A DNA stretch of 39,369 bases from the NCBI RefSeq assembly GCF_000731095.1, contig NZ_JMTZ01000037.1, positions 1 through 39,369 of the forward strand, given 5' to 3'. The position numbers and the translations under genes are program-made. The notes under the pieces are model-generated. The model was not told where the DNA came from and did not search any database. It worked only from the letters and a program-made list of their open reading frames with translations. Shown in pieces: positions 9,838-37,095 of this stretch (position 1 is the first letter of the stretch; the number at the start of each line of letters is the position of its first letter). This DNA comes from Lysobacter antibioticus (GTDB lineage Bacteria > Pseudomonadota > Gammaproteobacteria > Xanthomonadales > Xanthomonadaceae).

Positions 9838-11439
9838 CTATTTTTCCGTCCGTTTGCGTTTCGTCGTCGTAGTTTTCTTGGCCACGGCGGTGTCCTGCGG
9901 CGCGCGCTTGACTGCCTTGACCGTGCCGACGGTGGTGTCGCCGGACACCGCGTCGTCGAAGCGTTCTTGGGTACCGCAGCTGCGGTCGGGGTAGACGACG
10001 CAGGTGCAGGGGGCGACCCCCGTCATGCCGTCGACGTTAAGGCCGACGAAACCGAGCGGAGCGTAGCGGTGTTCGACCCCGAGCGGCGGCCGCAGTTCGG
10101 CGACGCCGCCGTTGCGCGGCCATTCGATGTCGCCGGTGGCGACGCGCGCCGGAATCAGCCAATAGTCGCCGCTGCGATACTCGCCGTCGGCGGCGAAACG
10201 GATCTGGATGCCGTCCTCGAGCGCTATCCAGTACAGCTCGCCGGGCTTGAGTGGCTTGCCGTCGTCGGGCTTGTCCACCGGCACCGCGCCGTCGACGAGC
10301 GCGATGTCGCCCGTACCGACATGGTCCCAGCGCCGTACCTTGGTCGTCGCATTGGGGCTGCGGCCCTGGGCCTGGGTCAGCGTCAACACGTTGCCTTCGA
10401 CGCCGCTGATCTGGCTCAGCTGGCCGGGACGGCCGAGCAGGTCGTCTTGTTCGTCGGTGATCTCGACCCATTGGCGCTCGCGGAAGTCGCGCGCGTTGGC
10501 GACTTCGAGCTTGTCGCCGCCGCCGCCGATCCAGCGCGTCAGCACGCTGCCGTTGTCGCGCGACCATTTGAAGGTAGCGCCGAGGTTGCCGTTCTCGTTG
10601 CCGCGATGGATCTCGACCCGGTACAGATGGTTTTCGGCGCCGCGATACGCCGAGTCTGGGTCGGTGACACAGGGGTCGTCGAGGCGCGGCAGTTCTTGCA
10701 ACTGCGCGGCAAGTTTCGGCCGTTGCCGATCGAACAGCAGCAGCGGTGCGGGGCAGGCCGAGCGATAGTCTTCCTCGAGTTGGTCCAGGCCCTGTTGCAA
10801 GCGTTCGATTTCCTGTTTCAGGCGCTCGCGCTCGGCTTCGTCCTGGGTTTGCTCGAGGCGTTCGTTGAGGACTTCGATGCGCTCTTCGAGCCGCTCCTGG
10901 ATCGTCTCCAGTTTCAATGCGCGCACTTGCCAGATCACCTGGCGCCGGCTGCAGGTGTCGGGCCCGCCGAGTGCGACCTCGCGCAGCTGCGGCATTTCCA
11001 CCGCGGTGAGATGGCGCTCCCACACGTCCAGATAGACCCAGAAACGGCTGTCGTCCTGGTTGGAGGACGATTCCAGCCACGACCGCAAGGGATCGCCCGA
11101 GCCGGGCTGCTCGCTGGCCGCCGCCGGGGTGAAATGCGGCTGCGCCAGATAATCGCTGCCGTCGCATTCGCACAGCACGCCGTCCACGTAATAGCGGCCG
11201 GCGCCGATCCGCAGCGAGCGCTTGCCGTCGTGCTGCTCCAGGGTCAGCCCGAACCCGGGTGTTCCGGCCGGCGCGGCATAGGGGCCGAACACGTCGCGGG
11301 CGAGCGTGCGCAGCAGATGCAGCAGGATCGCGCCTTGTTCGTTCGGGTCGGCATCTAGGGTGACCCGGCCCTGTTGCAGCAGGACCTGGCTGAAATGATG
11401 GCGGGGATCGAAGCTCGCCCGTGAGAAGTCGCCTTTCAT
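9838..11439 (-). CDS. DUF6519 family protein, last gene of the eCIS operon
   Basis: A 533-residue protein. The N-terminal motif (GDFSR, FDPRHHFSQV, QQGRVTLDADPNEQ within residues 3-40) is the DUF6519 signature seen in contractile injection and phage-tail-like loci. A strong coiled coil rich in Glu/Arg/Gln spans about residues 175-225. The C-terminal tail is Lys/Thr-rich (AKKTTTTKRKR) and probably disordered. It ends the operon, 18 bp after the gpI-type tail gene. Its role is unknown; an accessory baseplate or peripheral tail component is plausible, given its place beside the baseplate genes. There is no signal peptide or membrane segment. Confidence 0.75.
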   Translation of the reverse strand: MKGDFSRASFDPRHHFSQVLLQQGRVTLDADPNEQGAILLHLLRTLARDVFGPYAAPAGTPGFGLTLEQHDGKRSLRIGAGRYYVDGVLCECDGSDYLAQPHFTPAAASEQPGSGDPLRSWLESSSNQDDSRFWVYLDVWERHLTAVEMPQLREVALGGPDTCSRRQVIWQVRALKLETIQERLEERIEVLNERLEQTQDEAERERLKQEIERLQQGLDQLEEDYRSACPAPLLLFDRQRPKLAAQLQELPRLDDPCVTDPDSAYRGAENHLYRVEIHRGNENGNLGATFKWSRDNGSVLTRWIGGGGDKLEVANARDFRERQWVEITDEQDDLLGRPGQLSQISGVEGNVLTLTQAQGRSPNATTKVRRWDHVGTGDIALVDGAVPVDKPDDGKPLKPGELYWIALEDGIQIRFAADGEYRSGDYWLIPARVATGDIEWPRNGGVAELRPPLGVEHRYAPLGFVGLNVDGMTGVAPCTCVVYPDRSCGTQERFDDAVSGDTTVGTVKAVKRAPQDTAVAKKTTTTKRKRTEK

Positions 11440-11457
11440 AGCTGCTTTCCTTCCAGG

Positions 11458-13710
11458 TCAATCGGCGAAGAGAAGTCCGACGGTCATGCCGGCCGGGGTG
11501 TATTGGTCGAGCCGCGCGCGCAGGTTGGCCTCGCGTTGCGGCTCGTAGAGGTGGTGGTAGACGCCCATCTGCGATTCGTCGTCGGCGCCGCGCAGGATCT
11601 CCGGCGCGCAGTGATCGAGCAGCCGCGCATAGCCGGGCCGGCCGTAGCGGCGCGAGCGATAGCGCGGCCGCACCCGCAGGCGTTCGGCGGCGATCTCGCG
11701 CTGCTCCAGCGGCGCCGGCAGCTTGCGTTCGCGCACCGCGGCGATCGCGCCATCGGGTTGGCAGCGGTAGCGTCGCGGCGTGCGGCAGTGGCAGGGCACG
11801 TGGCTGAAACGCACGCAGCCGATCTGGCGGCGGGCGACGTTGAGGCAGTCGTTGAACAGGCAGTTCTCGGCCAGTTCCAAGGCATGCGCCTCGATCGTGC
11901 CGAACACGGTGCAGCGAAGCAGCTTCAGACGCGCATGCGCGACCGCCGAGGTCGCCGCGCCGATCGCTTCCTGGCGCGGGCCGGCGGCATCGACGATGCT
12001 GTCTTCGATCGTCAGCGGCATCGGATCGCTGCCGACCTCGTCCTGCTGGACCTGGATCGAGCCGACGATGCTGCGTTCGATCCGCACTTTTGCGCGCAGG
12101 TTGTACAACTCCAGGCTGGGCTCGGCCGGGCGGTCGGGTTCGCAGCCGCAACCGATGCCCCATCCGGGTACCAGGGTGCAGTGGCGGATCGACAGCTCGG
12201 CGGCGCAATCGGGTTGCCGTGCGGCCTGTTCGGCGTAGGTCTCGGGCTCGCGCGGCGCGGACACATGCAACGGCCGTCCGGTCAGCAGGATGCCGTCGAG
12301 AGCGAAGCGGCTGCCGACGTCCATCTCCACGGTCAGCGCATCGGCCAGGTCGGTCTGCCAGTCGATCAGGCGGATCACCGGACGCACACCGTTGGCTGCG
12401 CGCAAGCTCAGCGACTGCCCCGGTCGCAACCGGATATGCAGCGGTTCGACCCAGACCCCGCTGTGGATCAGTTCGATCACCGCGTGCTGCGGCGACTGTT
12501 CCTGCCACAGGCGCAGGGCGTCGGCGATGCGCGGCACCGGCGCGGGGGCGTCGGCCGAAGCGTCGTGCGCGCCGGACTCGCCGACCCGATACAGGCGGTA
12601 GTCCTGCGCCGGTCGGCGCATCGTCCGCCGGTACTCCCCGCCGCCGAGGTCGGCGGCGAAGCCGTAGTGATAGCTGACGCGCACGCCTTTCTTCGGAATC
12701 TGGTTCGGCGGGAACATCAGCCGGCCGAGCACCGGATCGATCGCGACCTTGCCGCGCGGCACGCGATAGCGCCAGCCGCTGAGGTCGGCGACCACGATCG
12801 CGCCGACCGGCAGCGGTTCGTTGGCGTCGTGGCCGGCCCAGCGTTCGGCCCACACCGCCAGGCTCTTGCCGATGCCGTACTCGTCGTCCAGGTGCCGTTC
12901 CAGGGCACGCCGACGCAGCGGCATCGGCAGGTTCTCCTCGCCGGCGAGATGGTGGCGGTCCGGTTCAGGGCGCGGCTTGCGGTACAGCGGCGCGTCCTGC
13001 CCCAGCACGCTGAAGGTAAAGCAATGCGGGCCGGCATCCTCGACGCAGTAGGCGGGTGTGCGGGTGACCGGATAGCTGCGCATGCGCCAGGCGAACACGC
13101 CGACGCTGGGGATGTTGTAGCGCCCCGGGCGACGCGGCGAAGCGATCCGGCGCACGTCGACGCTGTGCGCAAGCGGGTCGAACGGCCCGCCGCACAGATC
13201 CAAAGCGGCCATATCGCGCAGAGAAGCAGTGCCGAGCCGGTGCAGGTACAGGTGATCGAGGTTTTGGGCACGGTCCAGGCGCTGGAAGAACTCGACGGCG
13301 CGCGCCGGCCAGCCGGCGACGTCGCGGGCCAGGTCTTCGAGCAGGGCGACCGTGCCTTTGCGGCGACGATGCTGGATCGACTGGGCGACCTCGCGCCGCG
13401 GCACCAGCGCGCGTTCGAGTGCGCGCCCGGCTTCGTCGCGGCGCTGCACCGGTGCGCCGGCGGCGTCGACCGGGCGATAGCCGATCAGATCGGCGAGGTA
13501 GGGCACGACCCAGTCGTCGGCGGTCTCGATGAACCAGTTGTCGTACAACTGCGCGATATCGTCCTCGACCAGGTTCATCTGCTCGGCGATCACACGCAGC
13601 AAGGCCTGCAGCGGATAACCCTGTTCGATGTCGCGGATGCGGTGGATCGTCGGCAGCAGCCGGTACAGGCGGTCGATGCGCGGTTCGATGTGCAGCGAAG
13701 GGATGTCCAT
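11458..13710 (-). CDS. eCIS baseplate/tail protein, P2 gpI-like (Afp12-type position)
   Basis: A 750-residue protein. The N-terminal third matches the tail protein I family, with segments such as IHRIRDIEQGYPLQALLRVI, NLVEDDIAQLYDNWF and WVVPYLADLIGYRP. The C-terminal half is rich in beta-strand-like repeats with many cysteines (about residues 510-660) and may form a beta-helix. In phage, gpI forms the outer baseplate. The long C-terminal extension could also be a peripheral or receptor-contacting element, which matters because no other fibre gene is seen. ATG 13710 was chosen; an in-frame GTG at 13722 overlaps the previous stop as GTGA and would add four residues. Confidence 0.85.
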   Translation of the reverse strand: MDIPSLHIEPRIDRLYRLLPTIHRIRDIEQGYPLQALLRVIAEQMNLVEDDIAQLYDNWFIETADDWVVPYLADLIGYRPVDAAGAPVQRRDEAGRALERALVPRREVAQSIQHRRRKGTVALLEDLARDVAGWPARAVEFFQRLDRAQNLDHLYLHRLGTASLRDMAALDLCGGPFDPLAHSVDVRRIASPRRPGRYNIPSVGVFAWRMRSYPVTRTPAYCVEDAGPHCFTFSVLGQDAPLYRKPRPEPDRHHLAGEENLPMPLRRRALERHLDDEYGIGKSLAVWAERWAGHDANEPLPVGAIVVADLSGWRYRVPRGKVAIDPVLGRLMFPPNQIPKKGVRVSYHYGFAADLGGGEYRRTMRRPAQDYRLYRVGESGAHDASADAPAPVPRIADALRLWQEQSPQHAVIELIHSGVWVEPLHIRLRPGQSLSLRAANGVRPVIRLIDWQTDLADALTVEMDVGSRFALDGILLTGRPLHVSAPREPETYAEQAARQPDCAAELSIRHCTLVPGWGIGCGCEPDRPAEPSLELYNLRAKVRIERSIVGSIQVQQDEVGSDPMPLTIEDSIVDAAGPRQEAIGAATSAVAHARLKLLRCTVFGTIEAHALELAENCLFNDCLNVARRQIGCVRFSHVPCHCRTPRRYRCQPDGAIAAVRERKLPAPLEQREIAAERLRVRPRYRSRRYGRPGYARLLDHCAPEILRGADDESQMGVYHHLYEPQREANLRARLDQYTPAGMTVGLLFAD

Positions 13711-13718
13711 GTCGTCGC

Positions 13719-16700
13719 TCACTGGACCGGATTGAGGATCAGGGTGTCGGGCACGTTCGGCACGAAGCAGGCGAGCCGCGCCGGACGGATCGTGTCGCCA
13801 TCGGGCTCGGCGGGGCCGGCCTCGACGCGGGCGGGCGGCTGGACCGGTATCGGCTGTTCGTCGTTGCCGTTGAAGCCGCTGTCGCTGTCGCCGTAGACGA
13901 TGGCCTGGACGATGTCGGTGATCTCGTCCTGGCTTATCAGCCGGCGTTGGTCGCTCTGCCAGTCGATGACGGTCTCGGGGATGCCGCCGAAGCTGTCGAC
14001 GTCGACCCAGTCGACGCCGCGCACCGACTGCATCGCCGTGACGATCTCGCAGAGCAGGGCCGGCCGGGCCAGGGCGCGTTGGTCGAAGCCGAAGCGTTCC
14101 AGCAGGCGCTCGCGTACCGCGGTCGCGACCGGCTCCCAGCGATGACCGGGCAACAGACGCAGCCGCGCCTGCAGCACCAGGGCAATGCGTTCGCGCATGG
14201 CCACCTGCACCGACAAGGCGGGGTCGCCGAGTTCGCGCAGGGCCTGCATGAGGTTGCGATAGAGATCGGAGTTCGGGTCCAGCGGCATGTCGTCGACCCC
14301 GGCGACGGTGATGTGCACCACTTCGCGCACGCCGTCGCTGAGCCGCGCCGCCACGGCCTTGGCGATGCCGGCGAACATGCGGGTGAAGTCGGCGTAGTCC
14401 GACAGCGACACCAGCCGGTCCAGCGCCATCAACGAACGCGGCGCGTTCTCGCGGATCAGCCCGATGCTTTCGCGGTCGGCGCCGCCGGAGGCGTGCAATG
14501 GATTGATCACCTCCTTGATCCCGAGCGGACGGCTGATCAACAGCGAGATCTGTCCGGCGCGCACGTTGCCGCCCTTGCCGATGCCGTTGCGGTATTCGGC
14601 GCGCAGGTTCTCGAAGCCGCTCGGCGGGCGCAGGCCGTTGACGCCGTCGCCGAACACCACCGAGGTCACGCCGTCGTCGCCGGTCACGGTGACGTAGGCG
14701 CGCGCGTCGGGGCCGAGCCCGGCCAGGCTGTCGGTTTCCTGCCACTCCACCTCGTTGACCAGCACCTTGAGCGTGCTCGCCGCGCCCGCGGCGGTCGGCG
14801 CGGGGCGCCAGGTCAATGGCGGTTGGCGCAGGGCGAAGCGTTGCAGCGGCCGGCGTGCGTCGCTGCTGCCGAGCACCTCCTTGCGGGTCTCGCCGTGGCT
14901 GGCCGCGACCACGTTGGCGTGGATGCGCAGGCCGTCGCGGTAGTACACGTAGGCCAAGGGTGTGGCCAGGCGCAGGGTGGTGTGCGGACGGTCGCCGGGA
15001 CGCCAGAAGTCGCTGCCGTGCTCCAGGCCGGCGATCATCATCAGCTCGCTGACGCGCACGCCGCGCACCCCCGGGATGTCGCTGCGCTCGCCTTCCACCA
15101 CCACCCAGCGACCGGACTTGAGTTGCTCGTGCAACGGGCCCAGTTCCAGGCGGCTGCCGGAGACGTCGTCGAGAATCGGTTCGGCCGCCATCTCCAGCCG
15201 GCGCCGTTGCGGGTGCAGCCAGGTCTGGCGCAGTTCGTCGATCCGGCGGCGGGTCTGACCGTCGGCGACATCGCGCCAGGCGCTGGGCTCGCCTTCGGCG
15301 CCGAATTCGATCCGGGTGCTTTCCTGCGACAGGCCGTACGCGCTGCGCGGCCCGGTATGCGCGCTGGCGACGTGCATCACCTGATAGCGCGCCAACAGCT
15401 CGGTCGGCAGCGGTGGCCGCACGACCAGGACCCGGTCGCCGATCGCGAGCAGCGGATCGGCCTTGCCGAGGAAGGCGTTGCTGTCGCTTTCGTCGTCCTC
15501 GTAGACCCAGTCCGCCCACGATTCCACCGGCGGGATGGTGTTGTTGGTGGTGCCGGGCATCGGCTTGGACGAGCCGGCGCCGAACAGGGTCTCGCCGGCG
15601 CCGAGCACGTGCACGGCCGTCAACGAGGGCGTCGCCTGTTCGGGGCTGGAGCCGCGCCAGGCCGCGTAGTAACTGTCCTTGAGCGTCGGCGCGAAATCGG
15701 TGATCAGTTGCGGCTGCACATCGGCGTCGTAACTGAAGGTTTCGTCGAGTTTGCGCGGCAGGCGCAGGGTGTTGGCGGCCTGCAGCCGGCGTGGCGCCAG
15801 CAGATGCTCGACCGCGTCGTCGGGCCCGCCGTTCGGCGCGCTCGCGCCCGGTAGTTCGAGTTCGGCCAGTGCCTCGCCGAAAGCGTCGATGGCCTGCATG
15901 GCGTTGCCGTTCTCGACCCCGCCGTTCAGCAGGCCGGCCCATTCGTCCATCGGCGGACGCGGAGCGCCGAGGCGCAGCGCATTCAACAGCTGCGCGCAGT
16001 TCTCGATCGCGCGATCGTCCTGGGTAAAGGCCAGTTTGTTCTGCAGGATCTGCAACAGCGGGTGCGCCTGGTCCTGCAGTGGCGGCAGCGGCTGCAGGCG
16101 CAAACGCGTGCGCTGCCCGGCGAAGTCGGGTTCGACCGCGACCACGCGACGTGCGACGTGCACGGCGGTGGCCGAGGCGCCGAACTGGAGCAGCAACAGG
16201 TCGCCGGGCAGGACACCGGTGTCCACACCGACCGCGTGGATGCTGTCGAGGGCGAGCACGTTGGCCAGTTCGATCCGCTGCGGCCGCTCACGGCGGATCT
16301 GCAGGTCGTTCCACTCGCGCCGCGCCTGCAGCGCCTCGTCGGTCTCGAACGACTGCGGCAGTTCGCCGGGGCCGGGGATGCTCTGCGCGCGGGTGCCGAC
16401 CGGCAGTTCCACGGGCCCGGCCTGGTTGTCGTCGACGGTGTAGGACAGGAATACGCTGGACGAGACGCCGGCGCGCGGGGCGTAACCGACCAGGCGCGCC
16501 AGTTCGACCAGGGAGCGGCGTTCGCCGGCGGTGCGCAGATAGCCTTCGTTGGCGATGCGCTCCTGGTAGAAGCTCAGCACGTCCGAGACCGTGGCCCAAC
16601 CGTCGAGCAGGGCGATCGCCGGATCGGCCGGATCGCGCGTGGTCAGCGGCTGCAAGGGCCGCAAGCTGCGTGCGGCCTGTCGGCCGTCGCCGGGCACTTC

Positions 16701-16877
16701 GACCTCCATGCTCGGCAATCGCGCTTTCATGCTCGCGAGGAAGCGGCCGTGGGTGCCGACCCGGTAGGCCAGCGCCGGCAGTCCGCGCCGGTTGTCCAGC
16801 GCCACCGGCGTCGACGCCGCGACGCCTTCGCAGCAGCCACAGCGGGCGCTGCCGCATCCGCAGTCGTGAGCGCTCAT
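13719..16877 (-). CDS. eCIS baseplate wedge protein, gp6/J-type (second, larger copy)
   Basis: A 1052-residue putative baseplate assembly protein. The family segment is present near residues 87-140 (LLDGWATVSDVLSFYQERI, EGYLRTAGERRSLVELARLV), and the C-terminal baseplate-J region includes KEVINPLHASGGADRES and LSDYADFTRMFAGIAKAVA. By homology it builds the wedges that link hub and sheath. The N-terminus is unusually cysteine-rich: HDCGCGSARCGCCEG holds five Cys within the first 16 residues. ATG 16877 overlaps the stop of the preceding gene (ATGA). It is distinct from, though related to, the 836-residue protein before it. Confidence 0.9.
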   Translation of the reverse strand: MSAHDCGCGSARCGCCEGVAASTPVALDNRRGLPALAYRVGTHGRFLASMKARLPSMEVEVPGDGRQAARSLRPLQPLTTRDPADPAIALLDGWATVSDVLSFYQERIANEGYLRTAGERRSLVELARLVGYAPRAGVSSSVFLSYTVDDNQAGPVELPVGTRAQSIPGPGELPQSFETDEALQARREWNDLQIRRERPQRIELANVLALDSIHAVGVDTGVLPGDLLLLQFGASATAVHVARRVVAVEPDFAGQRTRLRLQPLPPLQDQAHPLLQILQNKLAFTQDDRAIENCAQLLNALRLGAPRPPMDEWAGLLNGGVENGNAMQAIDAFGEALAELELPGASAPNGGPDDAVEHLLAPRRLQAANTLRLPRKLDETFSYDADVQPQLITDFAPTLKDSYYAAWRGSSPEQATPSLTAVHVLGAGETLFGAGSSKPMPGTTNNTIPPVESWADWVYEDDESDSNAFLGKADPLLAIGDRVLVVRPPLPTELLARYQVMHVASAHTGPRSAYGLSQESTRIEFGAEGEPSAWRDVADGQTRRRIDELRQTWLHPQRRRLEMAAEPILDDVSGSRLELGPLHEQLKSGRWVVVEGERSDIPGVRGVRVSELMMIAGLEHGSDFWRPGDRPHTTLRLATPLAYVYYRDGLRIHANVVAASHGETRKEVLGSSDARRPLQRFALRQPPLTWRPAPTAAGAASTLKVLVNEVEWQETDSLAGLGPDARAYVTVTGDDGVTSVVFGDGVNGLRPPSGFENLRAEYRNGIGKGGNVRAGQISLLISRPLGIKEVINPLHASGGADRESIGLIRENAPRSLMALDRLVSLSDYADFTRMFAGIAKAVAARLSDGVREVVHITVAGVDDMPLDPNSDLYRNLMQALRELGDPALSVQVAMRERIALVLQARLRLLPGHRWEPVATAVRERLLERFGFDQRALARPALLCEIVTAMQSVRGVDWVDVDSFGGIPETVIDWQSDQRRLISQDEITDIVQAIVYGDSDSGFNGNDEQPIPVQPPARVEAGPAEPDGDTIRPARLACFVPNVPDTLILNPVQ

Positions 16878-19384: not shown

Positions 19385-19403
19385 GACGGAATCCCTGCCT
19401 CGG

Positions 19404-19760: not shown

Positions 19761-19788
19761 GGCGATTCTCCGGCTAGTGCTGCAGCGG

Positions 19789-20148: not shown

Positions 20149-20158
20149 GGCCGCGTCC

Positions 20159-21825: not shown

Positions 21826-21829
21826 GGCT

Positions 21830-22873: not shown

Positions 22874-22897
22874 CGTCTGGTTTCCCTTTCGGCCCGA

Positions 22898-24324: not shown

Positions 24325-24430
24325 CAGTCGCCCCTCAATAAGCCGCATACTTGGCTTCTGCGCGGGTGGGCGCAGTCGCAGGCCGAAAACGCTGCATGCG
24401 ACGGTCGCGGCATGGTCGCTGCGGGCGGTT

Positions 24431-27660: not shown

Positions 27661-27913
27661 CTTCGGATCTCCCGCCCCAGGGCCGTGGCGACGGAGCCGG
27701 CGACGGCGCGCGCCAGTCGCGCGGTTCCGGCATCGGTGCGGACCGCCGGCGCCGTCAGCCGCGCCAGCGAGGCACCGCTGCGTGCGTCCGCCAGGCGGCG
27801 ATCGCCGATCAGGCGTGCCAGCTCGTCGGTCAAGGCACGTACGAACTCGCCACGCTGCGCATCGCCGATCCTCGCGCCATGCACGACCACTCGCTCGATA
27901 TGCAGCTTGACGC

Positions 27914-27917
<4 letters not shown>
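27657..27917 (-). CDS. Small conserved-looking eCIS-operon protein, 86 aa
   Basis: An unrecognised 86-residue protein. It starts MSVKLHIERVVVHGARI, a beta-hairpin-like start, followed by helices rich in Arg and Ala (FVRALTDELARLIGDRR). It is joined by ATGA overlaps to the AAA+ ATPase gene before it and the DUF4157 gene after it, so it is almost certainly translated. A role as a loading factor or adaptor between the ATPase and DUF4157 protein is conceivable from position only. Confidence 0.8.
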
Positions 27918-30027
<2,110 letters not shown>

Positions 30028-30031
<4 letters not shown>

Positions 30032-31311
30032 GCCACCACCACGGTTTGTTGCGGGTCGAACTCGAAGCCGTCGGCTCCGACGATGCTGGGCAGGCTGTCC
30101 AGGCCGTCGACGCGCAAGCGCACTGGGTAGTCGCCGGCGGCCACGTCGGGCACGGTGAACTCCAGTACGCTCGCTTCGGCCGGATCGGCGGGCGTGTCGA
30201 TGCTGTCGGCCCGCACCTGGATGTCGCCGAATACGAGGCGTACACCGTCGTGCTGGGCCGGCAACAAGCGCGGCCGGCACCGGATCGTCAATGCGAGATC
30301 GCCGGTAGGTGCGGCCAGCGGAGTCACTTCGATCAACGGCGCGAGCGCCAATACCACGGTATTGCTGAGCAGCGCCGGTTGTCCCGGCGACGCTTCGCCG
30401 CGCAAGCGCACGGCGTATTGCCCGATGCGCCAATCCGCCAGCGCGCCGGCATCGCCGGGCGCCGGCAGCGCCACGAGCAGGGAATGTTCGTCTTCGCCCG
30501 CGCTCGCCGGCAGGGTTTGCTGCAGGCCGCCGCGTGCGGCTTCGAACATCGCCTGCGCACCGGTGGCGACCAGTCGCTCGCCGCGCAAGCGCAGGACATC
30601 GCCCAGGCGTGCCGCGGGCAGCAGTTCCGATGCCGCCGGACGGACTTCGTCGAGGCGAGGGGCGGCCGCCGCGAGAGCCTTCGGGCCGCGGTCGTCGGCG
30701 CCGCGCTTGAGCACCGGCAGCGCGCTGCGCGCACCGGCGTCGGACTCGATCAGCACCACCGATACCTGGTAAGCCATGGAGGGGCGGTAACGCGCCTGCA
30801 TCGCCGTCCACAGCTTGGTCAGCTCTTCGGTGTTGAGATACTTCGGGGTGATCTTGATCCACTCGATCTGGTCGGCGAGGCTCAATGCGGAGAAGTCGCC
30901 GAACGGCGGCGTCGGCGGGCCGAGCACGATGCGCAACTGCGCACGGCTCAGGGTGGGCGTCTCGTGCAGGAACTGCATGCCCAGGCCGAGCAGGGCTTCG
31001 GCCGCCAAGTCCTGGGCGCCGTAAGCGGTGAGCAGGTAATGCAGGTCCAGGGCCAGCGGCGGTGTGCCCATGCGGGCGCCGGCGCCGTCGCGGGCGGGCA
31101 GTTCCTGATTGCGCCAACCGCTGTTGGGCGTGACCTGATAGAGAAACAGATTGAGCTGATTGGGCTCGGTCTGGCCGGTGGTGATGCGGTCGGGCGGCAG
31201 GGCGCTGACGCTGACGCTGCCTATCGCCGACAGATCGAGCCCGAGCAGACCGTTGCCGATCAGGTCTTTCAATCCCGCGGTGACCGCAGCGATCGCCAGC
31301 GCGTTGCTCAT
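30028..31311 (-). CDS. eCIS cap/tail terminator, DUF4255 (Afp16-like) with C-terminal Ig-like extension
   Basis: A 427-residue protein. Residues about 1-190 match DUF4255: MSNALAIAAVTAGLKDLI at the start, LNLFLYQVTPNSGWRNQELP near 52-71, then LALDLHYLLTAYGA. In Afp this protein caps the tube and sheath and sets particle length. The remaining roughly 240 residues are an unusual extension for the family, with beta-sandwich (IPT/TIG- or Ig-like) patterns such as LEFTVPDVAAGDYPVRLRVD. These could decorate the cap or tether the particle. ATGA overlaps occur with both neighbours. Confidence 0.88.
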
Positions 31312-32264
31312 GGCCGGCCTCCATGGCGCCGGCGCAGATAGTCGTCGAGGCCGAGTTTCGGTTCGCGCGTCGGGCCCGGCGCGGATGCACCCGCCACTGA
31401 GTTAGGTGCAAGGGCGCCGACCTCGAGCCGCCCGATGGTGACCTGTATCGGCGCCGGAGACGATGCGAGCGGCGCAAGCGATGTCGCGGCCGCGCGGCCC
31501 GGGTTCGCTACCGGTGCGACCGGCGCCGCGTCGCGTCTGCGCGACATCGGGCTGGGCAGGGCTGCCGGGACGCTCAAGCGCTGCGGCTCCGCGGCGGGCT
31601 CCTGGGCATGCAGGGCGGCGGCCAACCTCGCAGCGTCCGCTTGCACTTGCGACTGCGTATGTTCGATGCGGGTCAGGCGCTCGACCCGTTCGATGTGTTC
31701 GACGCGGGCGGTACGTTCGATGCGCTCGCTGTGCGGCTTGGGTTCGTAGACGCCGGCGGTCTGGGTCGGGCCGATCGGTGGGTTCCGGTTCGGATGCGCA
31801 TGCGCATGCGGATGGCGTTGCGCGGTGGAGCCGGATTCGGCGTGTTCGGCCGGGCGATGGCTGCGGTAGGGCGATCCCGTCGGGACGGAAACTGCCGCCG
31901 GCACCGACAGCGGCACCGGCGGCGGTGCCGAGGCGGCGATGGTCGGCGCGGGAGTGGCGACGGGCGGAACGGTTTCGGATCTCGGCAGCGCTGAGGCGCC
32001 TTCCAACTGCGCGTGCTCTTCGATTGCATTCGGCCGGGCGAGTGACGGCATGGGCGCCGGTGCCGCCGCGACGACGATCGATTCGACGATGTCCGGGGCC
32101 GGGCCCGAGGGCTGCCGTGGCTCGAACAGCGAGGGCCGACGACGGGTCAGCAACGGCGTCTGCTGGCGTGTCCGCGCCACTACGCGATCGAGGAAGCCGT
32201 CGGCATCCGCGCGGGGACGCGCCGGACCGCGCACGTCGCCAGCCGTGTCGTTGCGGGCGCTCAT
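31308..32264 (-). CDS. Disordered eCIS-operon protein with short C-terminal motif
   Basis: A 318-residue protein, mostly Pro/Ala/Ser/Arg/His-rich and probably disordered. A charged heptad-like stretch (HSERIERTARVEHIERVERL, about 185-204) may form a coiled coil. The end stands out: IQVTIGRLEVGA followed by LGLDDYLRRRHGG. I recall a comparable ending (I-x-V-x-IGR-x-EV then L-x-DYL-x-R) in hypothetical proteins of other eCIS loci, but cannot verify this here. It lies between the zinc-ribbon protein and the DUF4255 cap, with ATGA overlaps on both sides. A scaffold or adaptor role is possible. Confidence 0.78.
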   Translation of the reverse strand: MSARNDTAGDVRGPARPRADADGFLDRVVARTRQQTPLLTRRRPSLFEPRQPSGPAPDIVESIVVAAAPAPMPSLARPNAIEEHAQLEGASALPRSETVPPVATPAPTIAASAPPPVPLSVPAAVSVPTGSPYRSHRPAEHAESGSTAQRHPHAHAHPNRNPPIGPTQTAGVYEPKPHSERIERTARVEHIERVERLTRIEHTQSQVQADAARLAAALHAQEPAAEPQRLSVPAALPSPMSRRRDAAPVAPVANPGRAAATSLAPLASSPAPIQVTIGRLEVGALAPNSVAGASAPGPTREPKLGLDDYLRRRHGGRP

Positions 32265-33043
32265 GCTTGCACCATGTCGAGATAGAAGCGACGCCGGGCC
32301 GGCGCCATGGCGAGAATGTCGCGCTCGCTCCAGGCGTAATTGCGCGCCAATACGTGAACTTCGGCGAGCAGATCTTGCGCCCAGTCGTCCAGTTCCTCCC
32401 ACAGGTAGCCGGCGACGTCCAGCGACGCCGACCAGGCGTGCCGACAGGAGGGGCATTCGACCGCCAACTGCAGGTCCGCGAGCGGGTCGTGATCGGCCAT
32501 CGCGGCGATGAGGCGCCGGCGCAGCGATGCCGGCAACTGCGCCGCGGCCAATGCCTCCCGGCCGCAGTGCGCGCTGACTATGCAGCGTTGCAACAGCAGG
32601 CCCACGCTTTCGTCCTGCTCGGCGCTGTCGTCGAGCGCCTCGATGTCGTCGCTGCAGGGAGGGCGGAAGTAGATCCGGTAATCGCGGTGCTTGAGCAACA
32701 AGGGCTCGCGCGGCGAAGGCATCTGCGCGGGCAAGGGACAAACCTCGCCGGCATCGAAGTCGGTTTCGAGACGGTCGCCGCAGGCCGGGCATGCGGCGAC
32801 GGCGCGCAGGCGTCCGCCGAACAAGCTTTTCTGGAGCAGGAGCAGGCAGGCATCGCGATCGCCGAGGCAGAGTCCGCGCCAATGCGAACGATCGTATTCG
32901 GGCCATACCGCCGCCAGCAGGCCGAGCGCACGCTCGGCCGGCGATGCCGAGTACGCGGTTTCCCACACGCGCAGCAAGGCCTCGATCATGCCCGAGGCGG
33001 AGGTCGTCGCGACGTACGATGCTGGCGCGCCAGCGGCACTCAT
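32261..33043 (-). CDS. Zinc-ribbon baseplate-type protein (T4-type baseplate protein family-like)
   Basis: A 260-residue protein following the tube gene with an ATGA overlap. It contains CPACGDRLETDFDAGEVC (about residues 80-97) and a second CPSC pair near 211, forming a possible four-cysteine zinc ribbon. The rest is helical with an acidic C-terminal half ending ARNYAWSERDILAMAPARRR. This pattern fits the small T4-type baseplate proteins annotated in eCIS and phage clusters next to the tube, some of which act as tail assembly chaperones. The assignment to that family is from layout and motif, not a search. Confidence 0.7.
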   Translation of the reverse strand: MSAAGAPASYVATTSASGMIEALLRVWETAYSASPAERALGLLAAVWPEYDRSHWRGLCLGDRDACLLLLQKSLFGGRLRAVAACPACGDRLETDFDAGEVCPLPAQMPSPREPLLLKHRDYRIYFRPPCSDDIEALDDSAEQDESVGLLLQRCIVSAHCGREALAAAQLPASLRRRLIAAMADHDPLADLQLAVECPSCRHAWSASLDVAGYLWEELDDWAQDLLAEVHVLARNYAWSERDILAMAPARRRFYLDMVQA

Positions 33044-33564
33044 GCAGGCTCCGTGAAGCTCGGTTCGGCCGGCTCGACCACATCGACGTCGCGCTCCCAG
33101 CCTTCGTTTTCCAGCTTCAGCCGCTGGATCGCGACCGCATTGGCATTGGCGTCGAGATCGGGCAGCGACTGGAACTCGGAGACCCAGCAGCGATACACCT
33201 TGTAGGCGATGGCGAGCTGGCCGGCTTCGTTGTAGACCTCGATGATCAGGTCCTTGCGGAAGTCCTTGAGCGACACCTCCGAGCCCAGGCCGGCACCGTA
33301 GTTCCAGACTTTGTTCGCCCACTGCTCGAATTCCTTGTCGTGGGTGACGCCGCGTTCGAGCGTGACCGCCTCGAATTCGGTGCGTCCCGGCGATTTGCGG
33401 CTGCTGCTGGGGTCGCCGCCGTCGCGGTGCTTGACCACCTCGGTACTGCGTTTGAGTGCGCTGACCTTGCTGATGCCGGCGACGTATTTGTTGTCCCACT
33501 TGACCCTGAACTTGAAGTTCTTGTACGGGTCGAAGCGCTGCGCATTGACGGTGAACTGGGCCAT
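33040..33564 (-). CDS. eCIS inner tube protein (gp19/Hcp-like, Afp1/5 type)
   Basis: A 174-residue tube protein. Family features are the start FDPYKNFKFRVKWDNKYVAG, the central TEFEAVTLERGVTHDKEFEQ, and the terminal strand pattern RCWVSEFQSLPDLDANANAV followed by IQRLKLENEGWERD. It polymerises as hexamer rings to form the inner tube through which cargo passes. Only one tube gene is present, as against two in Afp/PVC. AGGAG lies 7 bases before the ATG, 30 bp after the sheath gene. Confidence 0.94.
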   Translation of the reverse strand: MAQFTVNAQRFDPYKNFKFRVKWDNKYVAGISKVSALKRSTEVVKHRDGGDPSSSRKSPGRTEFEAVTLERGVTHDKEFEQWANKVWNYGAGLGSEVSLKDFRKDLIIEVYNEAGQLAIAYKVYRCWVSEFQSLPDLDANANAVAIQRLKLENEGWERDVDVVEPAEPSFTEPA

Positions 33565-33594
33565 GGAAGTGCTCCTGAGGCGTGGATGAGAAAC

Positions 33595-35502
33595 TCAGAC
33601 GTCGATCTGGCCGGCGATCTGCTGGATGCGCAGGACCACGAATTCGGCCGGTTTCAACGGCGCGAAGCCGACCACGACGTTGACCACGCCCAGGTTGATG
33701 TCGTTCTGGGTGGTGGTGTCCTTGTCGCAGCGGACGAAGTAGGCGTCGCGCGGCGAACTGCCCTGGAACGCGCCCTGCCGGAACAGGTTGTGCATGAAGG
33801 CGCCGACGTTGAGGCGGATCTGCGCCCACAGCGGTTCGTCGTTGGGCTCGAACACCACCCATTTCAGGCCGCGGAACAGGCTCTCCTCGATGAACAAGGC
33901 GGTGCGACGCACCGGCGTGTATTTGTATTCGTCGGCGAGTTGGTCGGCGCCGCGCAGGGTGCGCGCGCCCCAGACCACGCGGCCGCTGGCCGGCATCGCG
34001 CGCAGGCAGTTGATGCCGAGCGGGTTGAGCTCTCCGTTTTCGGCGTCGGTCAGCGGCACCGACAACTGCGGCACGCCGACCAGGGTCGCGTCGAGACCGG
34101 CCGGCGCTTTCCACACGCCGCGGCTGGCGTCGGTGCGAGCGAAGATGCCGGCGACCGCGCCGCAGGGAGCGAAGCTCTCGATGCCGTTGTCGCGCAGCAA
34201 GTTGGGCTGGCGCAGGCGCGGGAAGAAGATCGCGGCGTTGCGGCTCTTCGGGTCGGCGACGGTGTCCAGGCCGGCGATCGCCGCCTCCTTGCTGGTCCAG
34301 CCGCTAGGCGGATCGATCACATGGAAGGCGCGGCGCCGTTCGCAATAAGCGGTCGCGGCCGAGAGCACGATCGGTTCGGCGTCGAACTGGATGCCGTCGA
34401 CGCTCTTGTACGGCGGAATGCACAGCAGGTTGAACAGGTCGGACTGTTCGAGCGCGTACAAGCCCTTTTTCAGCTGCATGCCCTGGTCGGGCAGGAAGTG
34501 CAGCGCGCCCAGGTGGCCGCCGTCGGAGGCGGCCTGGTCGGCCTCTTCGTATTTCACCGCCAGCGCCGCGCGCTTGGTCTCCCAGAGCGCGCGTGCGGCG
34601 TCGATATCGGCTTGCGACGCGCCGGCCTTGATCAGGTCGTCGAGCTCGGTCTTGGCATCGCCGACTTCGGCTTCGGCGGTGGTGATCGCATCGGTGCCGG
34701 CGCTGACCGAACCGGGCAAGGCGCCCTTGACCCGCACCAGGGCCGACTCGGATTCGAGTACCCGGTCGATGCGGCGCGGGCTTTCGACCACGGTGACGTT
34801 GAGATAGGTTTCCACCGCGCCGCCGGGGCTGGCGTCGCGTATGGTCAGGTTGAACAACGCGGAAGGGGCTACGCCGAAAGCCAGTGCGACCTCGGCGTTG
34901 GGCGAGGCGACGATCTCGCCGCGCAACTTGCCGCCCCAGGCGCCCTCGTAGGCGGCCTCCAGCGACAGTTCCTCGATCGTCAGCGGCGCGCGCGCGGGCG
35001 CTATGCTGGCCTTGGCCGCCTTCTGCACCGTTTGCGCGGTCGCACCGGGCTCTTCCGAAGCCCCTTTGGCGACCAGGGCGACCGCTTTGGCCGCGCTCTT
35101 CTCCGGGTCGTTGGGGTAGGTGTTGGCCTTGGTCTCGGCCGCCGTGGCCGCTGCGGCGGCGCTGTCGCCGGTGGCGGCAGCGACGACCGCGATCGCGGCC
35201 GCTTCGGCGGCGGGACTGGCGAAGCTGGCGGTGGTGGAGGCGTACAGGCGCACGATGATCGCCTGGCTGCCGCCGTTGAGGAAGAAATCGCGCACCGCGT
35301 AACCGAGCTGGCTCTGCAGCCACAGTCCTCCGTAACGACGTTCGAAGTCGCCGAAGCCGTTGATCACGATCGCTCGGTCGACCGGCCCGCGCCGGGCGCG
35401 TCCCACGAAGGCGGTGATCGAGGTCGCGACCCCGGTGATGGTGCGGACTCCGCTAGGAATCTCCTCGACGTAGACGCCCGGGTAGGTGAGCGCAGCTGGC
35501 AT
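33595..35502 (-). CDS. eCIS contractile sheath protein (Afp2/3/4 type)
   Basis: A 635-residue tail sheath protein. The N-terminus PAALTYPGVYVEEIPSGVRT is the canonical sheath start, and the C-terminal domain ends with NVVVGFAPLKPAEFVVLRIQ, the conserved sheath C-terminus. The middle (about 80-330) is a variable, Ala-rich insertion likely exposed on the particle surface. Only one sheath gene exists, against three in Afp/PVC. The start at 35502 is decided by spacing: AAGGAG is 7 bases from this ATG but only about 1-2 from the in-frame ATG at 35508. Confidence 0.95.
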   Translation of the reverse strand: MPAALTYPGVYVEEIPSGVRTITGVATSITAFVGRARRGPVDRAIVINGFGDFERRYGGLWLQSQLGYAVRDFFLNGGSQAIIVRLYASTTASFASPAAEAAAIAVVAAATGDSAAAAATAAETKANTYPNDPEKSAAKAVALVAKGASEEPGATAQTVQKAAKASIAPARAPLTIEELSLEAAYEGAWGGKLRGEIVASPNAEVALAFGVAPSALFNLTIRDASPGGAVETYLNVTVVESPRRIDRVLESESALVRVKGALPGSVSAGTDAITTAEAEVGDAKTELDDLIKAGASQADIDAARALWETKRAALAVKYEEADQAASDGGHLGALHFLPDQGMQLKKGLYALEQSDLFNLLCIPPYKSVDGIQFDAEPIVLSAATAYCERRRAFHVIDPPSGWTSKEAAIAGLDTVADPKSRNAAIFFPRLRQPNLLRDNGIESFAPCGAVAGIFARTDASRGVWKAPAGLDATLVGVPQLSVPLTDAENGELNPLGINCLRAMPASGRVVWGARTLRGADQLADEYKYTPVRRTALFIEESLFRGLKWVVFEPNDEPLWAQIRLNVGAFMHNLFRQGAFQGSSPRDAYFVRCDKDTTTQNDINLGVVNVVVGFAPLKPAEFVVLRIQQIAGQIDV

Positions 35503-35530
35503 GACCATTCTCCTTGCTGGGTTCGTGGAA

Positions 35531-35797
35531 TCACAATGCGGGGGGCATCGGTGCGCGGCCGAGCGAGTACAGCGTGGTGCCGTCGGGCAGGCGGCGCAGG
35601 CGCAGGGCGCCGTCGCCGACCAGCCGTTCGAGGGTCGCTTCGATGCGCGCGTGGGCGGTGACGTAGCGTTGCTGCGGCAACCACCATTGGACGATGCCGT
35701 CGAGCGTGTCGGCGGCGAGCGGATGCGCGCCGATGTAGCCGAGCACGGCGGCTTCGATTTCTGCGTCGCGTTCCTGCGCTCGCTCCGGCGTCGTCAT
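35531..35797 (-). CDS. Small winged-helix-like protein, first gene of the eCIS operon
   Basis: An 88-residue protein with an acidic helical start (TPERAQERDAEIEAAVLGYI) followed by a helix-turn-helix/wing-like pattern (ATLERLVGDGALRLRRLPDG, TTLYSLG). It resembles a small winged-helix domain, but DNA binding is unproven; it could equally be a structural adaptor. It starts 23 bases after the inferred sigma-54 transcription start, with AAGGAA upstream of the ATG, and is 28 bp from the sheath gene. Confidence 0.72.
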   Translation of the reverse strand: MTTPERAQERDAEIEAAVLGYIGAHPLAADTLDGIVQWWLPQQRYVTAHARIEATLERLVGDGALRLRRLPDGTTLYSLGRAPMPPAL

Positions 35798-35831
35798 TGC
35801 TGCGTTTCCTTGCTCCGACGAGGGATAGCAA

Positions 35832-35847
35832 GCAATCGTCGTGCCAA
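35832..35847 (-). promoter_or_regulatory. Sigma-54 promoter of the eCIS operon
   Basis: On the minus strand the sequence reads TTGGCACG-ACGA-TTGC followed by T, a near-perfect -24/-12 element with the right spacing. The inferred +1 is about 35820, 23 bases before the ATG at 35797. Its core is the same as that of the nitrate operon promoter. The sigma-54 activator gene immediately upstream supports it. Confidence 0.88.
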
Positions 35848-35966
35848 CTTCTTCGCGGTTGCAGCGAGCGGCGAGGAAGTCGCGGCAAGGTCATGAAAAA
35901 CGGAGCGAAGCCGGCTCGAAGGCGGCAGGGCGGCGTGGTATGCGGCCGAGGCCGGCGAAGGCATCC

Positions 35967-36007
35967 GGGTGCGCGCGCACCCACATCGCCGGGTGCGCGC
36001 GGACACC
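35967..36007. promoter_or_regulatory. Two palindromic sites, candidate activator-binding sites (UAS)
   Basis: GGGTGCGCGCGCACCC (35967-35982) is a perfect 16-bp palindrome. A second, imperfect copy GGTGCGCGCGGACACC (35992-36007) follows, with centres about 25 bp apart. They lie about 150-185 bp upstream of the inferred eCIS start, the usual range for sigma-54 activator sites, and overlap the 3' side of the activator gene. An alternative is a termination hairpin for that gene, but no T-tract follows. Confidence 0.55.
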
Positions 36008-36015
36008 TGCGGCGT

Positions 36016-37095
36016 TCAGCCGATGCGCAGCCGGTCGCCGTGGATGCCGTGGCGCTTGAGCAGCTTGCCGAGGTGCCGGCGCTCGGTGCGCGAGATCTCG
36101 GCGGCGTGGCTGATGTTGCCCTTGGCCTGTTGCATCAGGCCGATCAGGTAGGTGCGCTCGAACACTTCGATCGCTCGGCGCTTGGCCGAGGCGAAACCTT
36201 GTTCGTGCGGGATCGAATCGACCGGCGCCGAGTCGACAGACACCGAGTCGACAAGCGCGGATGCAACAAGCGCCGATTCGGCAGGCGCCCGCGCTTCGGC
36301 ATGGGCCGTCGCATCGGTCAGGCTCAGTTCCTCCACGCCGATATCCAGCCGGTCCGAGCGCAGACAGGCGCGCAGGATCGCGTTCTCCAACTCGCGCACG
36401 TTGCCGGGCCAGCGTTGCCGGGCCAACGCCTGCAACGCCGCAGGACTCCATTCGCGCGGCGGCATGTCCTGGTCGCGCACGACCTCCCGCAGCAGATGCC
36501 GGGCGAGCAGGACGATGTCGTCACCGCGTTCGCGCAGCGGCGGAAGGGCCACATACAAGGCGTTAAGGCGATACAGCAAGTCGCGGCGGAAGTGCCCGGC
36601 CTCGACCGCCGCGAGCAGCGAGATATTGGTCGCCGCGACGATACGCACGTCGGCCACTCGCAGCGGCCGTTCGCCGATCGCGCGAAACTCGCCGTTCTGC
36701 AGGAAGCGCAGCAGGATGGTCTGCGCACGCGCGGACAGGGAGTCGATCTCGTCGAGGAACAAGGTGCCGCCGTTCGCATATTCGACCAATCCGGGCTCGC
36801 TGGTACGCGCATCGGTAAAGGCGCCGCGGCGATGGCCGAACAGTTCCGATTCGAGCAATGAATCGGGCAGGGCGCCGCAATTGACCGGAACGAACGGCCC
36901 CAGGCTGCGCGGGCTGGCGTAGTGGACCTCGCGCGCGGCCAATTCCTTGCCGGTACCGGTCTCGCCTTCGATCAGGATCGGGGCATTGCAGCCGGCGTAA
37001 CGTCGCAGCAGGCGCCGGATGGCCTGCATCGGCTCGGACTCGCCGATCATCGACATAGACGGTCCCGTCGGCTTCGTTGCGGAAGTCCGTTGCAT
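36016..37095 (-). CDS. Sigma-54-dependent activator without sensory domain (PspF-like layout), probable eCIS regulator
   Basis: A 359-residue bacterial enhancer-binding protein. The AAA+ domain starts almost at once (Walker A GETGTGK 44-50; Walker B TLFLDEID 111-118). The sigma-54 contact loop reads GAFTDA (91-96) instead of GAFTGA. A linker of pentapeptide repeats (around VDSVSVDSAPVDS) leads to a C-terminal Fis-type helix-turn-helix (AKGNISHAAEISRTERRHLG). No receiver, GAF or PAS domain precedes the ATPase, so activity must be set by expression or a partner protein. AAGGAAG lies 7 bases before ATG 37095. It sits 218 bp upstream of the eCIS operon in the same direction. Confidence 0.92.
   Translation of the reverse strand: MQRTSATKPTGPSMSMIGESEPMQAIRRLLRRYAGCNAPILIEGETGTGKELAAREVHYASPRSLGPFVPVNCGALPDSLLESELFGHRRGAFTDARTSEPGLVEYANGGTLFLDEIDSLSARAQTILLRFLQNGEFRAIGERPLRVADVRIVAATNISLLAAVEAGHFRRDLLYRLNALYVALPPLRERGDDIVLLARHLLREVVRDQDMPPREWSPAALQALARQRWPGNVRELENAILRACLRSDRLDIGVEELSLTDATAHAEARAPAESALVASALVDSVSVDSAPVDSIPHEQGFASAKRRAIEVFERTYLIGLMQQAKGNISHAAEISRTERRHLGKLLKRHGIHGDRLRIG
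36212..36286. repeat. 15-bp imperfect tandem repeat in the activator linker
   Basis: Five units of 15 bp (36212, 36227, 36242, 36257, 36272) with a recurring GAGTCGAC-like core encode five pentapeptides in the order AESAL, VASAL, VDSVS, VDSAP, VDSIP. It lies between the AAA+ domain and the DNA-binding domain. Changes in copy number would keep the reading frame and alter linker length. Confidence 0.75.

What the first reader, a model, noticed from the sequence alone, without database searches (positions are those of the whole stretch)
9838..37095. Complete RpoN-controlled eCIS locus with its own activator
A 21-gene operon encodes sheath, tube, adaptors, hub, spike, PAAR tip, gp25, two gp6/J proteins, gpI, DUF4255 cap, AAA+ ATPase and a DUF4157 protein. 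It has no phage head, integration or lysis genes. It is preceded by a sigma-54 activator gene and a near-perfect sigma-54 promoter. Sequence shows the layout; eCIS identity follows from known Afp/PVC families; function as a secreted or intracellular injection particle is inference.
Basis: partly seen in the sequence, partly recalled or inferred. Interest (0 to 1): 0.9.

Follow-up and report, generated by a model that had tools for sequence, protein, structure and literature searches.

The report
Sigma-54-switched bacterial protein-injection syringe locus
This stretch of what is most likely a Lysobacter genome encodes a phage-tail-like protein syringe together with its own likely on-switch (an activator gene, a specialised promoter and a small DNA-binding-type protein), and the same switch turns up in front of several different kinds of such syringes in related bacteria.

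Summary
Window 9838-37095 (minus strand) carries 22 tightly packed open genes plus an upstream sigma-54 activator (bEBP): sheath, tube, gp25, spike, two TIGR02243 baseplate proteins, Pvc16/DUF4255, AAA+ ATPase and an eCIS_core/DUF4157 protein. The sheath matches solved CIS sheaths, not T6SS. An exact sigma-54 site lies 33 nt before the first gene. New here: bEBP, promoter and a small winged-helix gene ("w88", 35531-35797) form a recurrent cassette. Of 44 w88 places found in 395 family genomes, 43 have a bEBP upstream, 38 a sigma-54-like site, 37 a CIS sheath downstream. In 80 sheath-found loci, w88 occurs in 15 of 18 with a bEBP within 4 kb and 0 of 62 without. Paired GGGT-N8-ACCC dyads, probable enhancers, precede the promoter in 14 of 16 loci of this bEBP clade. 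The cassette sits on different eCIS chassis. Listings of open-licence papers showed no sigma-54 control of eCIS. Regulation and function themselves are inferred.

The parts
36016..37095 (-). bEBP: sigma-54 activator, AAA+ from residue 16, no N-terminal sensor domain, GAFTDA loop, Fis-type HTH
   Evidence: PF00158 7.7e-61, HTH_8 0.0037 (below its cut-off); NifA/NtrC/PspF-type models, all below their equivalog cut-offs; loop read; orthologues in 15 of 395 family genomes, own included
35967..36006 (.). two candidate enhancer dyads GTGTCCGCGCGCACCC (35991-36006) and GGGTGCGCGCGCACCC (35967-35982), 24 bp apart
   Evidence: two or more sites in 14 of 16 loci of the bEBP clade, 31-33 bp apart in 12 of those 14
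35831..35846 (-). sigma-54 promoter TGGCACGACGATTGCT, 33 nt before the w88 ATG
   Evidence: 0 mismatches, 0.01 expected by shuffles; 4 exact sites in the genome against 3 for the reversed pattern
35531..35797 (-). w88: 88 aa winged-helix protein, first gene of the operon, likely co-regulator
   Evidence: AF2 H-H-H-E-E, pLDDT 76; Foldseek winged-helix domains; in 15 of 18 eCIS loci with a bEBP within 4 kb, 0 of 62 without
33595..35508 (-). sheath, 637 aa
   Evidence: Phage_sheath_1 4.8e-12; PDB 8bky 6.5e-71, Pvc2, Afp2/3
33040..33564 (-). inner tube, 174 aa
   Evidence: gp19 1.2e-45; PDB 7adz, 7b5h, Afp1, Pvc1
32261..33043 (-). T4-baseplate-like protein with CxxC
   Evidence: PF12322 1.8e-5, phrog_150 3.1e-5
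31308..32264 (-). 318 aa Pro/Ala-rich, fast-evolving protein
   Evidence: no confident family hit; dN/dS 0.44 against G506
30028..31311 (-). Pvc16/DUF4255 tail terminator (cap)
   Evidence: Pvc16_N 1.5e-48
27914..30031 (-). AAA+ ATPase (Pvc15-like role by context)
   Evidence: AAA 3.8e-27 and WHD 2.6e-18
27657..27917 (-). 86 aa small protein after the ATPase
   Evidence: 4-nt overlaps; tblastn matches in some relatives
25141..27660 (-). eCIS_core/DUF4157 protein, 839 aa, HExxH; probable cargo or cargo carrier
   Evidence: eCIS_core 6.5e-24; HELTH read; its last 599 aa have no match in 298 other genomes sampled from the order, but G506 and G478, not in that sample, carry it
24431..25144 (-). 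cargo-slot protein, 237 aa
   Evidence: no family hit; slot variable among relatives
23689..24348 (-). cargo-slot protein, 219 aa, Pro-rich
   Evidence: no family hit; dN/dS 0.48 against G506
22898..23689 (-). cargo-slot protein, 263 aa
   Evidence: partly similar to sequence at the equivalent place in G115 and G013
22220..22873 (-). Afp7/CIS_tube-like protein, 217 aa
   Evidence: weak PF19266 0.014, below cut-off; conserved
21830..22153 (-). 107 aa baseplate-region protein
   Evidence: weak PHROG tail hits 0.0088-0.05; conserved
20698..21825 (-). hub (by position only)
   Evidence: no Pfam hit; VgrG_rel 0.023
20159..20701 (-). spike, gpV/gp45 type
   Evidence: Phage_base_V 3.1e-14
19789..20148 (-). 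PAAR-like tip (by position only)
   Evidence: no Pfam hit up to E 1; conserved in most relatives
19404..19760 (-). gp25 wedge
   Evidence: GPW_gp25 7.3e-15
16874..19384 (-). baseplate gp6/J protein 1
   Evidence: TIGR02243 4.9e-93; PDB 9gtp 2.7e-10
13719..16877 (-). baseplate gp6/J protein 2
   Evidence: TIGR02243 2.2e-76
11458..13710 (-). gpI-like protein (by position)
   Evidence: only Phage_Mu_Gp48 0.02, below cut-off; conserved
9838..11439 (-). DUF6519 protein, last gene
   Evidence: PF20129 1.3e-81; 927-1115 aa in G103, G123, G196

Best explanation
A functional eCIS-type contractile injection machine, most likely in a Lysobacter, is switched on through sigma-54. Proposed working: the adjacent bEBP, which has no sensor domain of its own, binds the paired GGGT-N8-ACCC dyads, loops to RpoN polymerase at TGGCACG-N4-TTGCT and drives one long transcript of 22 genes. 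The first product, the winged-helix protein w88, acts back on this switch, by binding DNA or the activator. The machine is loaded with the DUF4157 protein (and perhaps its neighbours) from the variable slot between the ATPase and the Afp7-like gene. Shown: gene content, purifying selection on the genes compared, exact promoter, conservation and co-occurrence of bEBP, promoter and w88, conserved dyads, the same cassette on different chassis, predicted winged-helix fold. Inferred: that the bEBP binds these dyads, that transcription is RpoN-dependent, that w88 regulates, that slot proteins are cargo, and the injection function itself.
For: Exact sigma-54 site 33 nt before the first gene; one rpoN; 7 strong bEBP hits in the genome (of 10 matches), 2 of them beside its two CIS loci. 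Family relatives: promoter at most 1 mismatch in 7 of 7 fetched eCIS loci with the bEBP, none in G103, which lacks bEBP and w88. Nine further bEBP loci: promoter at most 2 mismatches in 9 of 9. Sheath-found loci (best 80 of 285): promoter in 12 of 18 with a bEBP within 4 kb against 3 of 57 without (62 less 5 with short upstream sequence); w88 15 of 18 against 0 of 62 (Fisher 2e-7 and 1e-13). Tree-aware: w88 goes with bEBP in 9-11 of 11 independent pairs and never against it, median p 0.002; 10 pairs, p 0.004, after dropping 11 rows, mostly with short upstream sequence. w88-seeded: of 26 newly fetched loci 25 have a bEBP upstream and 20 a promoter within 250 bp, where 3.7% of 1909 background tiles do. 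Dyad pairs in 8 of 10 clade loci not used to spot the motif. GAFTDA is listed among variants held to keep activity (PMC4641369, passages read).
Against: No expression data. In the window and its near relative G506 the dyads are 24 bp apart, not 31-33. G123 and L099 have a bEBP and promoter but no such dyad, so the dyad belongs to one bEBP clade. 6 of 18 broad loci with a bEBP lack a promoter match, and in two of them (L059, L068) the bEBP lies on the other strand. Exact sigma-54 sites are hardly more frequent in the genome than the reversed pattern (4 against 3). Seven of 44 w88 places show no sheath in the 4.9-6.9 kb seen downstream, so the cassette is not exclusive to CIS. The dyad motif was first spotted by eye in the sequences on which one search counted it. 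No tail fibre found, so target and mode of release are unknown.
Confidence: 0.82

Rival explanations
1. The eCIS is real but the bEBP regulates something else; the sigma-54-like site is incidental and the operon is driven by a housekeeping or other promoter.
For: No expression data; 6 of 18 broad bEBP loci lack a promoter match, and 62 of 80 eCIS loci have no bEBP within 4 kb.
Against: Promoter, bEBP and w88 occur together and are missing together; all 15 bEBP orthologues found at E <= 1e-85 (own included) lie beside an eCIS; chance of any bEBP within 4 kb of a random point in this genome is about 0.01.
Confidence: 0.08
2. w88 is a structural or assembly part of the particle, not a regulator.
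For: It is the first gene of the structural operon and lies next to sheath or Pvc16 genes.
Against: Not found in 62 of 62 eCIS loci without a nearby bEBP; at seven places it occurs with no sheath seen downstream, in six of them with a bEBP upstream; predicted winged-helix fold.
Confidence: 0.15
3. The machine works inside the producing cell (as recalled for Streptomyces CIS) or from a membrane, rather than as a released particle.
For: No recognisable tail fibre or lysis gene; the sheath's closest solved relatives are 8bky and 8bl4, which I recall as Streptomyces CIS (not from a call). PMC12923769 says loci without fibre candidates might act intracellularly (passage read).
Against: Nothing decisive; DUF6519, the 318 aa protein and the slot proteins are uncharacterised and one could be a fibre.
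Confidence: 0.35
4. The paired dyads are a terminator hairpin for the bEBP gene, not enhancers.
For: In the window the two copies can pair with each other over 10 bp (GCGCGCACCC / GGGTGCGCGC, read).
Against: No T-run follows in the window; copies keep 31-33 bp spacing in 12 of 14 loci; single copies are themselves palindromic in several loci; positions 77-203 bp upstream of the -24 element are enhancer-like.
Confidence: 0.1

Closest known systems
eCIS / contractile injection systems (Afp, PVC, AlgoCIS, Anabaena tCIS, Streptomyces CIS; some entry-to-system names recalled)
   Same: Sheath, tube, gp25, spike, two J-type baseplate proteins, DUF4255, AAA+ ATPase and DUF4157 in one operon; sheath hits 8bky, 8bl4, 9ezm, Pvc2, Afp2/3, All3325.
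   Different: Under a sigma-54 cassette with a bEBP and winged-helix gene; separate hub and spike genes; no fibre recognised; DUF6519 as last gene.
GerE (LuxR-type), BTAD or RfaH-associated eCIS regulation (PMC8213781, passages read)
   Same: An adjacent regulator gene is proposed to control an eCIS locus.
   Different: There the named regulators are GerE, BTAD and RfaH; the word 'sigma' does not occur in the main text.
VasH-type sigma-54 control of T6SS (recalled; T6SS/RpoN papers seen only in search listings)
   Same: A contractile injection machine under a bEBP.
   Different: T6SS machinery, not eCIS; the bEBP here lacks a sensor domain and goes with w88.
PspF-like bEBPs without N-terminal domain (recalled; PspF model hit below its cut-off)
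   Same: AAA+ at the N-terminus, Fis-type HTH, control presumably in trans.
   Different: GAFTDA loop, linked to eCIS and w88.

Membership tests
eCIS | contractile sheath and gp19-type tube | tested here: met
eCIS | baseplate set: gp25, two J/gp6 proteins, spike | tested here: met
eCIS | DUF4255/Pvc16 and AAA+ ATPase | tested here: met
eCIS | DUF4157 (eCIS_core) marker | tested here: met
eCIS | PAAR tip | tested here: inconclusive
   no profile hit, position only
eCIS | tail fibre | tested here: inconclusive
   none recognised in the Pfam scans
eCIS | released particle that contracts and injects | not testable with these tools
   needs microscopy
T6SS | TssB/TssC sheath and TssJLM membrane complex in the locus | tested here: not met
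   no such hit in the locus (Pfam on 22 of 23 genes; J2 by NCBIfam); sheath matches CIS. The rest of the genome was not searched for T6SS.
prophage or tailocin | head, integrase or lysis genes | tested here: not met
   none above cut-off in the same scans; PHROGs, run on 10 genes, gave for DUF6519 only weak hits, mostly on one stretch, among them integrase 0.02 and virion protein 0.22, which I take as chance; flanks are nitrite/nitrate-type genes, a T4SS-effector-like gene and an asparaginase-family gene
bEBP (sigma-54 activator) | PF00158 AAA+ domain with GAFTGA-type loop and Fis HTH | tested here: met
   (HTH_8 only weak); loop is GAFTDA, a variant held to be active
sigma-54 promoter | -24/-12 site with bEBP-dependent transcription | tested here: inconclusive
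   sequence exact and conserved; transcription not tested
winged-helix protein (w88) | H-H-H-E-E fold | tested here: met
   AF2 pLDDT 76, pTM 0.59; Foldseek to winged-helix domains, E 8.6e-4 to 0.05 in the 50 rows shown; a prediction, not a solved structure

The most novel reading that the evidence does not exclude
bEBP, sigma-54 promoter with paired enhancer dyads, and w88 form a portable switch that bacteria plug in front of structurally different contractile injection machines (at least three chassis by sheath identity in this family, plus loci in other Pseudomonadota, Acidobacteriota, a Bacteroidota bin and a KSB1 bin), and w88 is its dedicated co-regulator, giving eCIS a common, previously unrecognised control logic tied to RpoN.
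Probability: 0.6. Interest if true: 0.75.

Novelty: new variant of a known kind. Interest (0 to 1): 0.62.

Why it matters
When and why bacteria switch on eCIS is little understood; the regulators named in the survey I could consult are GerE, BTAD and RfaH types (PMC8213781, passages). A defined activator, candidate binding site, promoter and candidate co-regulator make eCIS expression directly testable in a cultivable soil genus, give a handle to turn the machine on for particle preparation, and w88 offers a short marker for finding further such loci (44 places in 39 of 395 genomes).

Tried and rejected
First Pfam scans used mechanical longest ORFs, several in the wrong frame or with over-long starts; real starts were set. 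The promoter filter had a one-base slip in the required GC position: one search then in effect reported only sites with at most 1 mismatch, and wrongly reported none; one search is the corrected run. A search of the own genome for two dyads in a row was useless because the pattern excluded the window's own first copy. GGACA-N4-TGTCC dyads seem to replace the GGGT type in L062, but C38 (whose bEBP groups with L062's) does not pass the same threshold, so I make no claim. Searches of solved structures by sequence with hub, gpI, Afp7-like and Pvc16 proteins gave nothing useful. Rfam and tRNA scans were empty. Considered and rejected: T6SS, prophage or tailocin (see membership test); tape-measure role for the DUF4157 protein, since its counterparts in the relatives run from 619 to 2372 aa.

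Paper coverage: only open-licence PMC text was searched; Chen et al. 2019 (PMC6899500) is not held. 'Not in print' means not found in the listings, most of whose papers (T6SS papers among them, such as PMC6653060) I did not open, and in the passages returned; one search returned no passage.
Full report
What is there. On the minus strand of window 9838-37095 lie a sigma-54 activator gene (36016-37095) and, 218 nt further on, 22 genes with gaps of -4 to 82 nt, all open. Profiles give sheath, tube, Pvc16_N, eCIS_core, Phage_base_V, gp25 and DUF6519, two TIGR02243 baseplate proteins and the AAA+ ATPase. The sheath's best solved relatives are CIS sheaths (8bky 6.5e-71, 8bl4, 9ezm, Pvc2, Afp2/3); phage gp18 sheaths follow only at 7e-6 and worse, and no TssB/TssC chain is among the 20 matches; the tube agrees. 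PAAR, hub and gpI are named by position only. Flanks are nitrite/nitrate-type genes and a T4SS-effector-like gene on one side and an asparaginase-family gene on the other. The genome is in the same genus group as G488, whose contig length (231,163 bp) is that of Lysobacter enzymogenes ATCC 29487, so it is most likely a Lysobacter.

The switch. Between activator and first gene lies TGGCACGACGATTGCT (35831-35846), an exact sigma-54 site 33 nt before the first ATG. The genome of 5.53 Mb has four exact sites; the same pattern read backwards has three, so the number says nothing and the place does. The genome has one rpoN and ten PF00158 matches, seven of them strong (E below 1e-49), two of which sit beside its two CIS loci. 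The activator's AAA+ domain begins at residue 16 of 359, so it has no sensor domain, and its loop reads GAFTDA, a variant listed as compatible with activation (PMC4641369, passages).

Conservation test. Of 198 family genomes, 25 have a tube match, 13 of them (own included) at 60% identity or more. I fetched the 12 others. Seven have the eCIS with bEBP, w88 and a promoter with at most 1 mismatch; G103 has the eCIS with none of the three; four (G139, G012, G174, G010) have only a lone tube gene. A wider draw gave close tubes in 23 of 395 genomes: 19 with the eCIS around them, and bEBP plus w88 in 18 of those 19. A search for the bEBP found 15 of 395 genomes, own included, at E <= 1e-85; all 15 lie beside an eCIS.

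Enhancer dyads. The intergenic regions hold GGGT-N8-ACCC dyads. In the set where I spotted them, 13 sites against 0.38 by shuffles, none in one of the seven loci, G123 (circular). In ten loci of the same bEBP clade not used for spotting, 8 have two or more and two have one. In all, 14 of 16 clade loci have at least two (G116 and G435 are near-copies), spaced 31-33 bp in 12 of the 14 and 24 bp in the window and G506. Outside the clade the motif is mostly missing (G123, L099, L062, C38: none; L053 and L070: one; G196: two, 133 bp apart).

The small gene. w88 is predicted to fold as H-H-H-E-E (pLDDT 76) and Foldseek finds winged-helix domains (best E 8.6e-4 to a plant O-methyltransferase; then, among others, Fur and other bacterial regulators at E 0.01-0.05; the fold name is my reading). 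Among the 80 eCIS loci kept of 285 found by sheath across phyla, a bEBP lies within 4 kb in 18; w88 is in 15 of those (14 by tblastn, one more by profile) and in 0 of the other 62; the promoter is in 12 of 18 against 3 of 57 with enough upstream sequence. bEBP presence changes at least 11 times on supported branches of the sheath tree, and w88 goes with it in 9-11 of 11 independent pairs and never against it; dropping 11 rows (ten with about 2 kb or less upstream, and L109), and then 8 long or odd rows, leaves 10 pairs and p 0.004.

w88 as bait. A profile of 20 w88 rows found 44 w88 places in 39 of 395 family genomes (13 candidates were scored in each genome listed, so a lower bound). Eighteen were already examined; I fetched the other 26. 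Of these 26, 25 have a bEBP upstream on the same strand, 20 a promoter with at most 2 mismatches within 250 bp (3.7% of 1909 background tiles do), and 19 a CIS sheath downstream. Over all 44: bEBP 43, promoter 38, sheath 37. The seven without a sheath in the 4.9-6.9 kb seen (G189, G137 second place, G115 second place, G156, G013 second place, G061, G049) precede other genes; of nine ORFs tested from four of these places, three hit the GNAT family and six have no confident hit.

Portability. G116 and G435 carry an activator, dyads and w88 of the window's clade (55-57% identical) in front of a different machine: G435, read furthest, has two sheaths about 40% identical to the window's, two tubes and one large ORF matching the spike. 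Their bEBP falls inside a 100/99-supported clade of 16 with the window's. Holding 21 bEBPs of window-type loci together against G116, G435, C38 and seven distant bEBPs of window-type loci (which I left out of the 21 for their distance) is rejected, AU p 0.0006; with those seven left out the test is narrower than 'all window-type loci'. The window's own genome has a second CIS on contig C38 with its own bEBP (AAA+ from residue 185 of the 507 aa ORF), w88 and a 2-mismatch sigma-54 site.

Cargo. Between the ATPase and the Afp7-like gene the relatives carry different eCIS_core/DUF4157 proteins: 311 (G115), 415 and 732 (G123), 619 (G103), 1460 (G044), 1485 (G157) and 2372 aa (G013); G115 also has a 2758 aa ORF whose scanned 2000 residues have no hit. 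In the window it is 839 aa plus three smaller proteins. Its last 599 aa match nothing in 298 other genomes drawn from the order, though G506 and G478, which were not in that draw, have the protein at 94% and 81%. [quoted passage not shown] That these are cargo is inference.

Selection. Against G506, dN/dS is 0-0.24 for 18 of the 20 genes compared and 0.44 and 0.48 for the other two; against G478 it is 0.09-0.70 over 18 genes: a locus under purifying selection, with the 318 aa and 219 aa proteins the loosest.

Verdict. The machine itself is a new member of a known kind; the sigma-54 cassette with w88 is what is new, as far as the open-licence listings and passages that I saw show.

Noticed in passing
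L119, L120, L121 (G139, G012, G174) and L122 (G010), tube at locus position 6001: Lone eCIS-type tube genes, 65-78% identical to the window's, with no eCIS around them; G139, G012 and G174 have no sheath match in the whole-genome search, G010 has a distant one (45%) on another contig. In G012 and G174 the gene lies between what read as mutL and an AMIN-amidase gene (names from sequence, recalled). Open and well conserved; role unknown.
   Followed up: partly
L135 (own genome, C38:62001-82000): Second CIS in the same genome, of another chassis (sheath-like ORFs, Pvc16_N), with its own bEBP, a sigma-54-like site and a w88 homologue.
   Followed up: partly
L198, L202-L207: w88 genes with no CIS sheath in the 4.9-6.9 kb seen downstream (bEBP upstream in 6 of 7); 3 of 9 ORFs tested there are GNAT acetyltransferases. 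What they control is unexplained.
   Followed up: partly
window 8418-9665 (+): X-Tfes_XVIPCD protein (6.5e-7), a candidate type IV secretion effector, directly beside the eCIS.
   Followed up: no
window 22898-27660: Variable cargo slot: relatives carry DUF4157 proteins of 311-2372 aa, and in G115 a further 2758 aa ORF, in the same place.
   Followed up: partly
window 9838-11439: DUF6519 gene at the operon end is 533 aa here but 927-1115 aa in G103, G123 and G196; could be the missing fibre or a tip partner. Structure job not finished.
   Followed up: partly
L062 intergenic (9337-9533): A different dyad, GGACA-N4-TGTCC (two sites at most 1 mismatch), precedes the promoter there, suggesting that other bEBP clades have their own enhancer sequence.
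   Followed up: no
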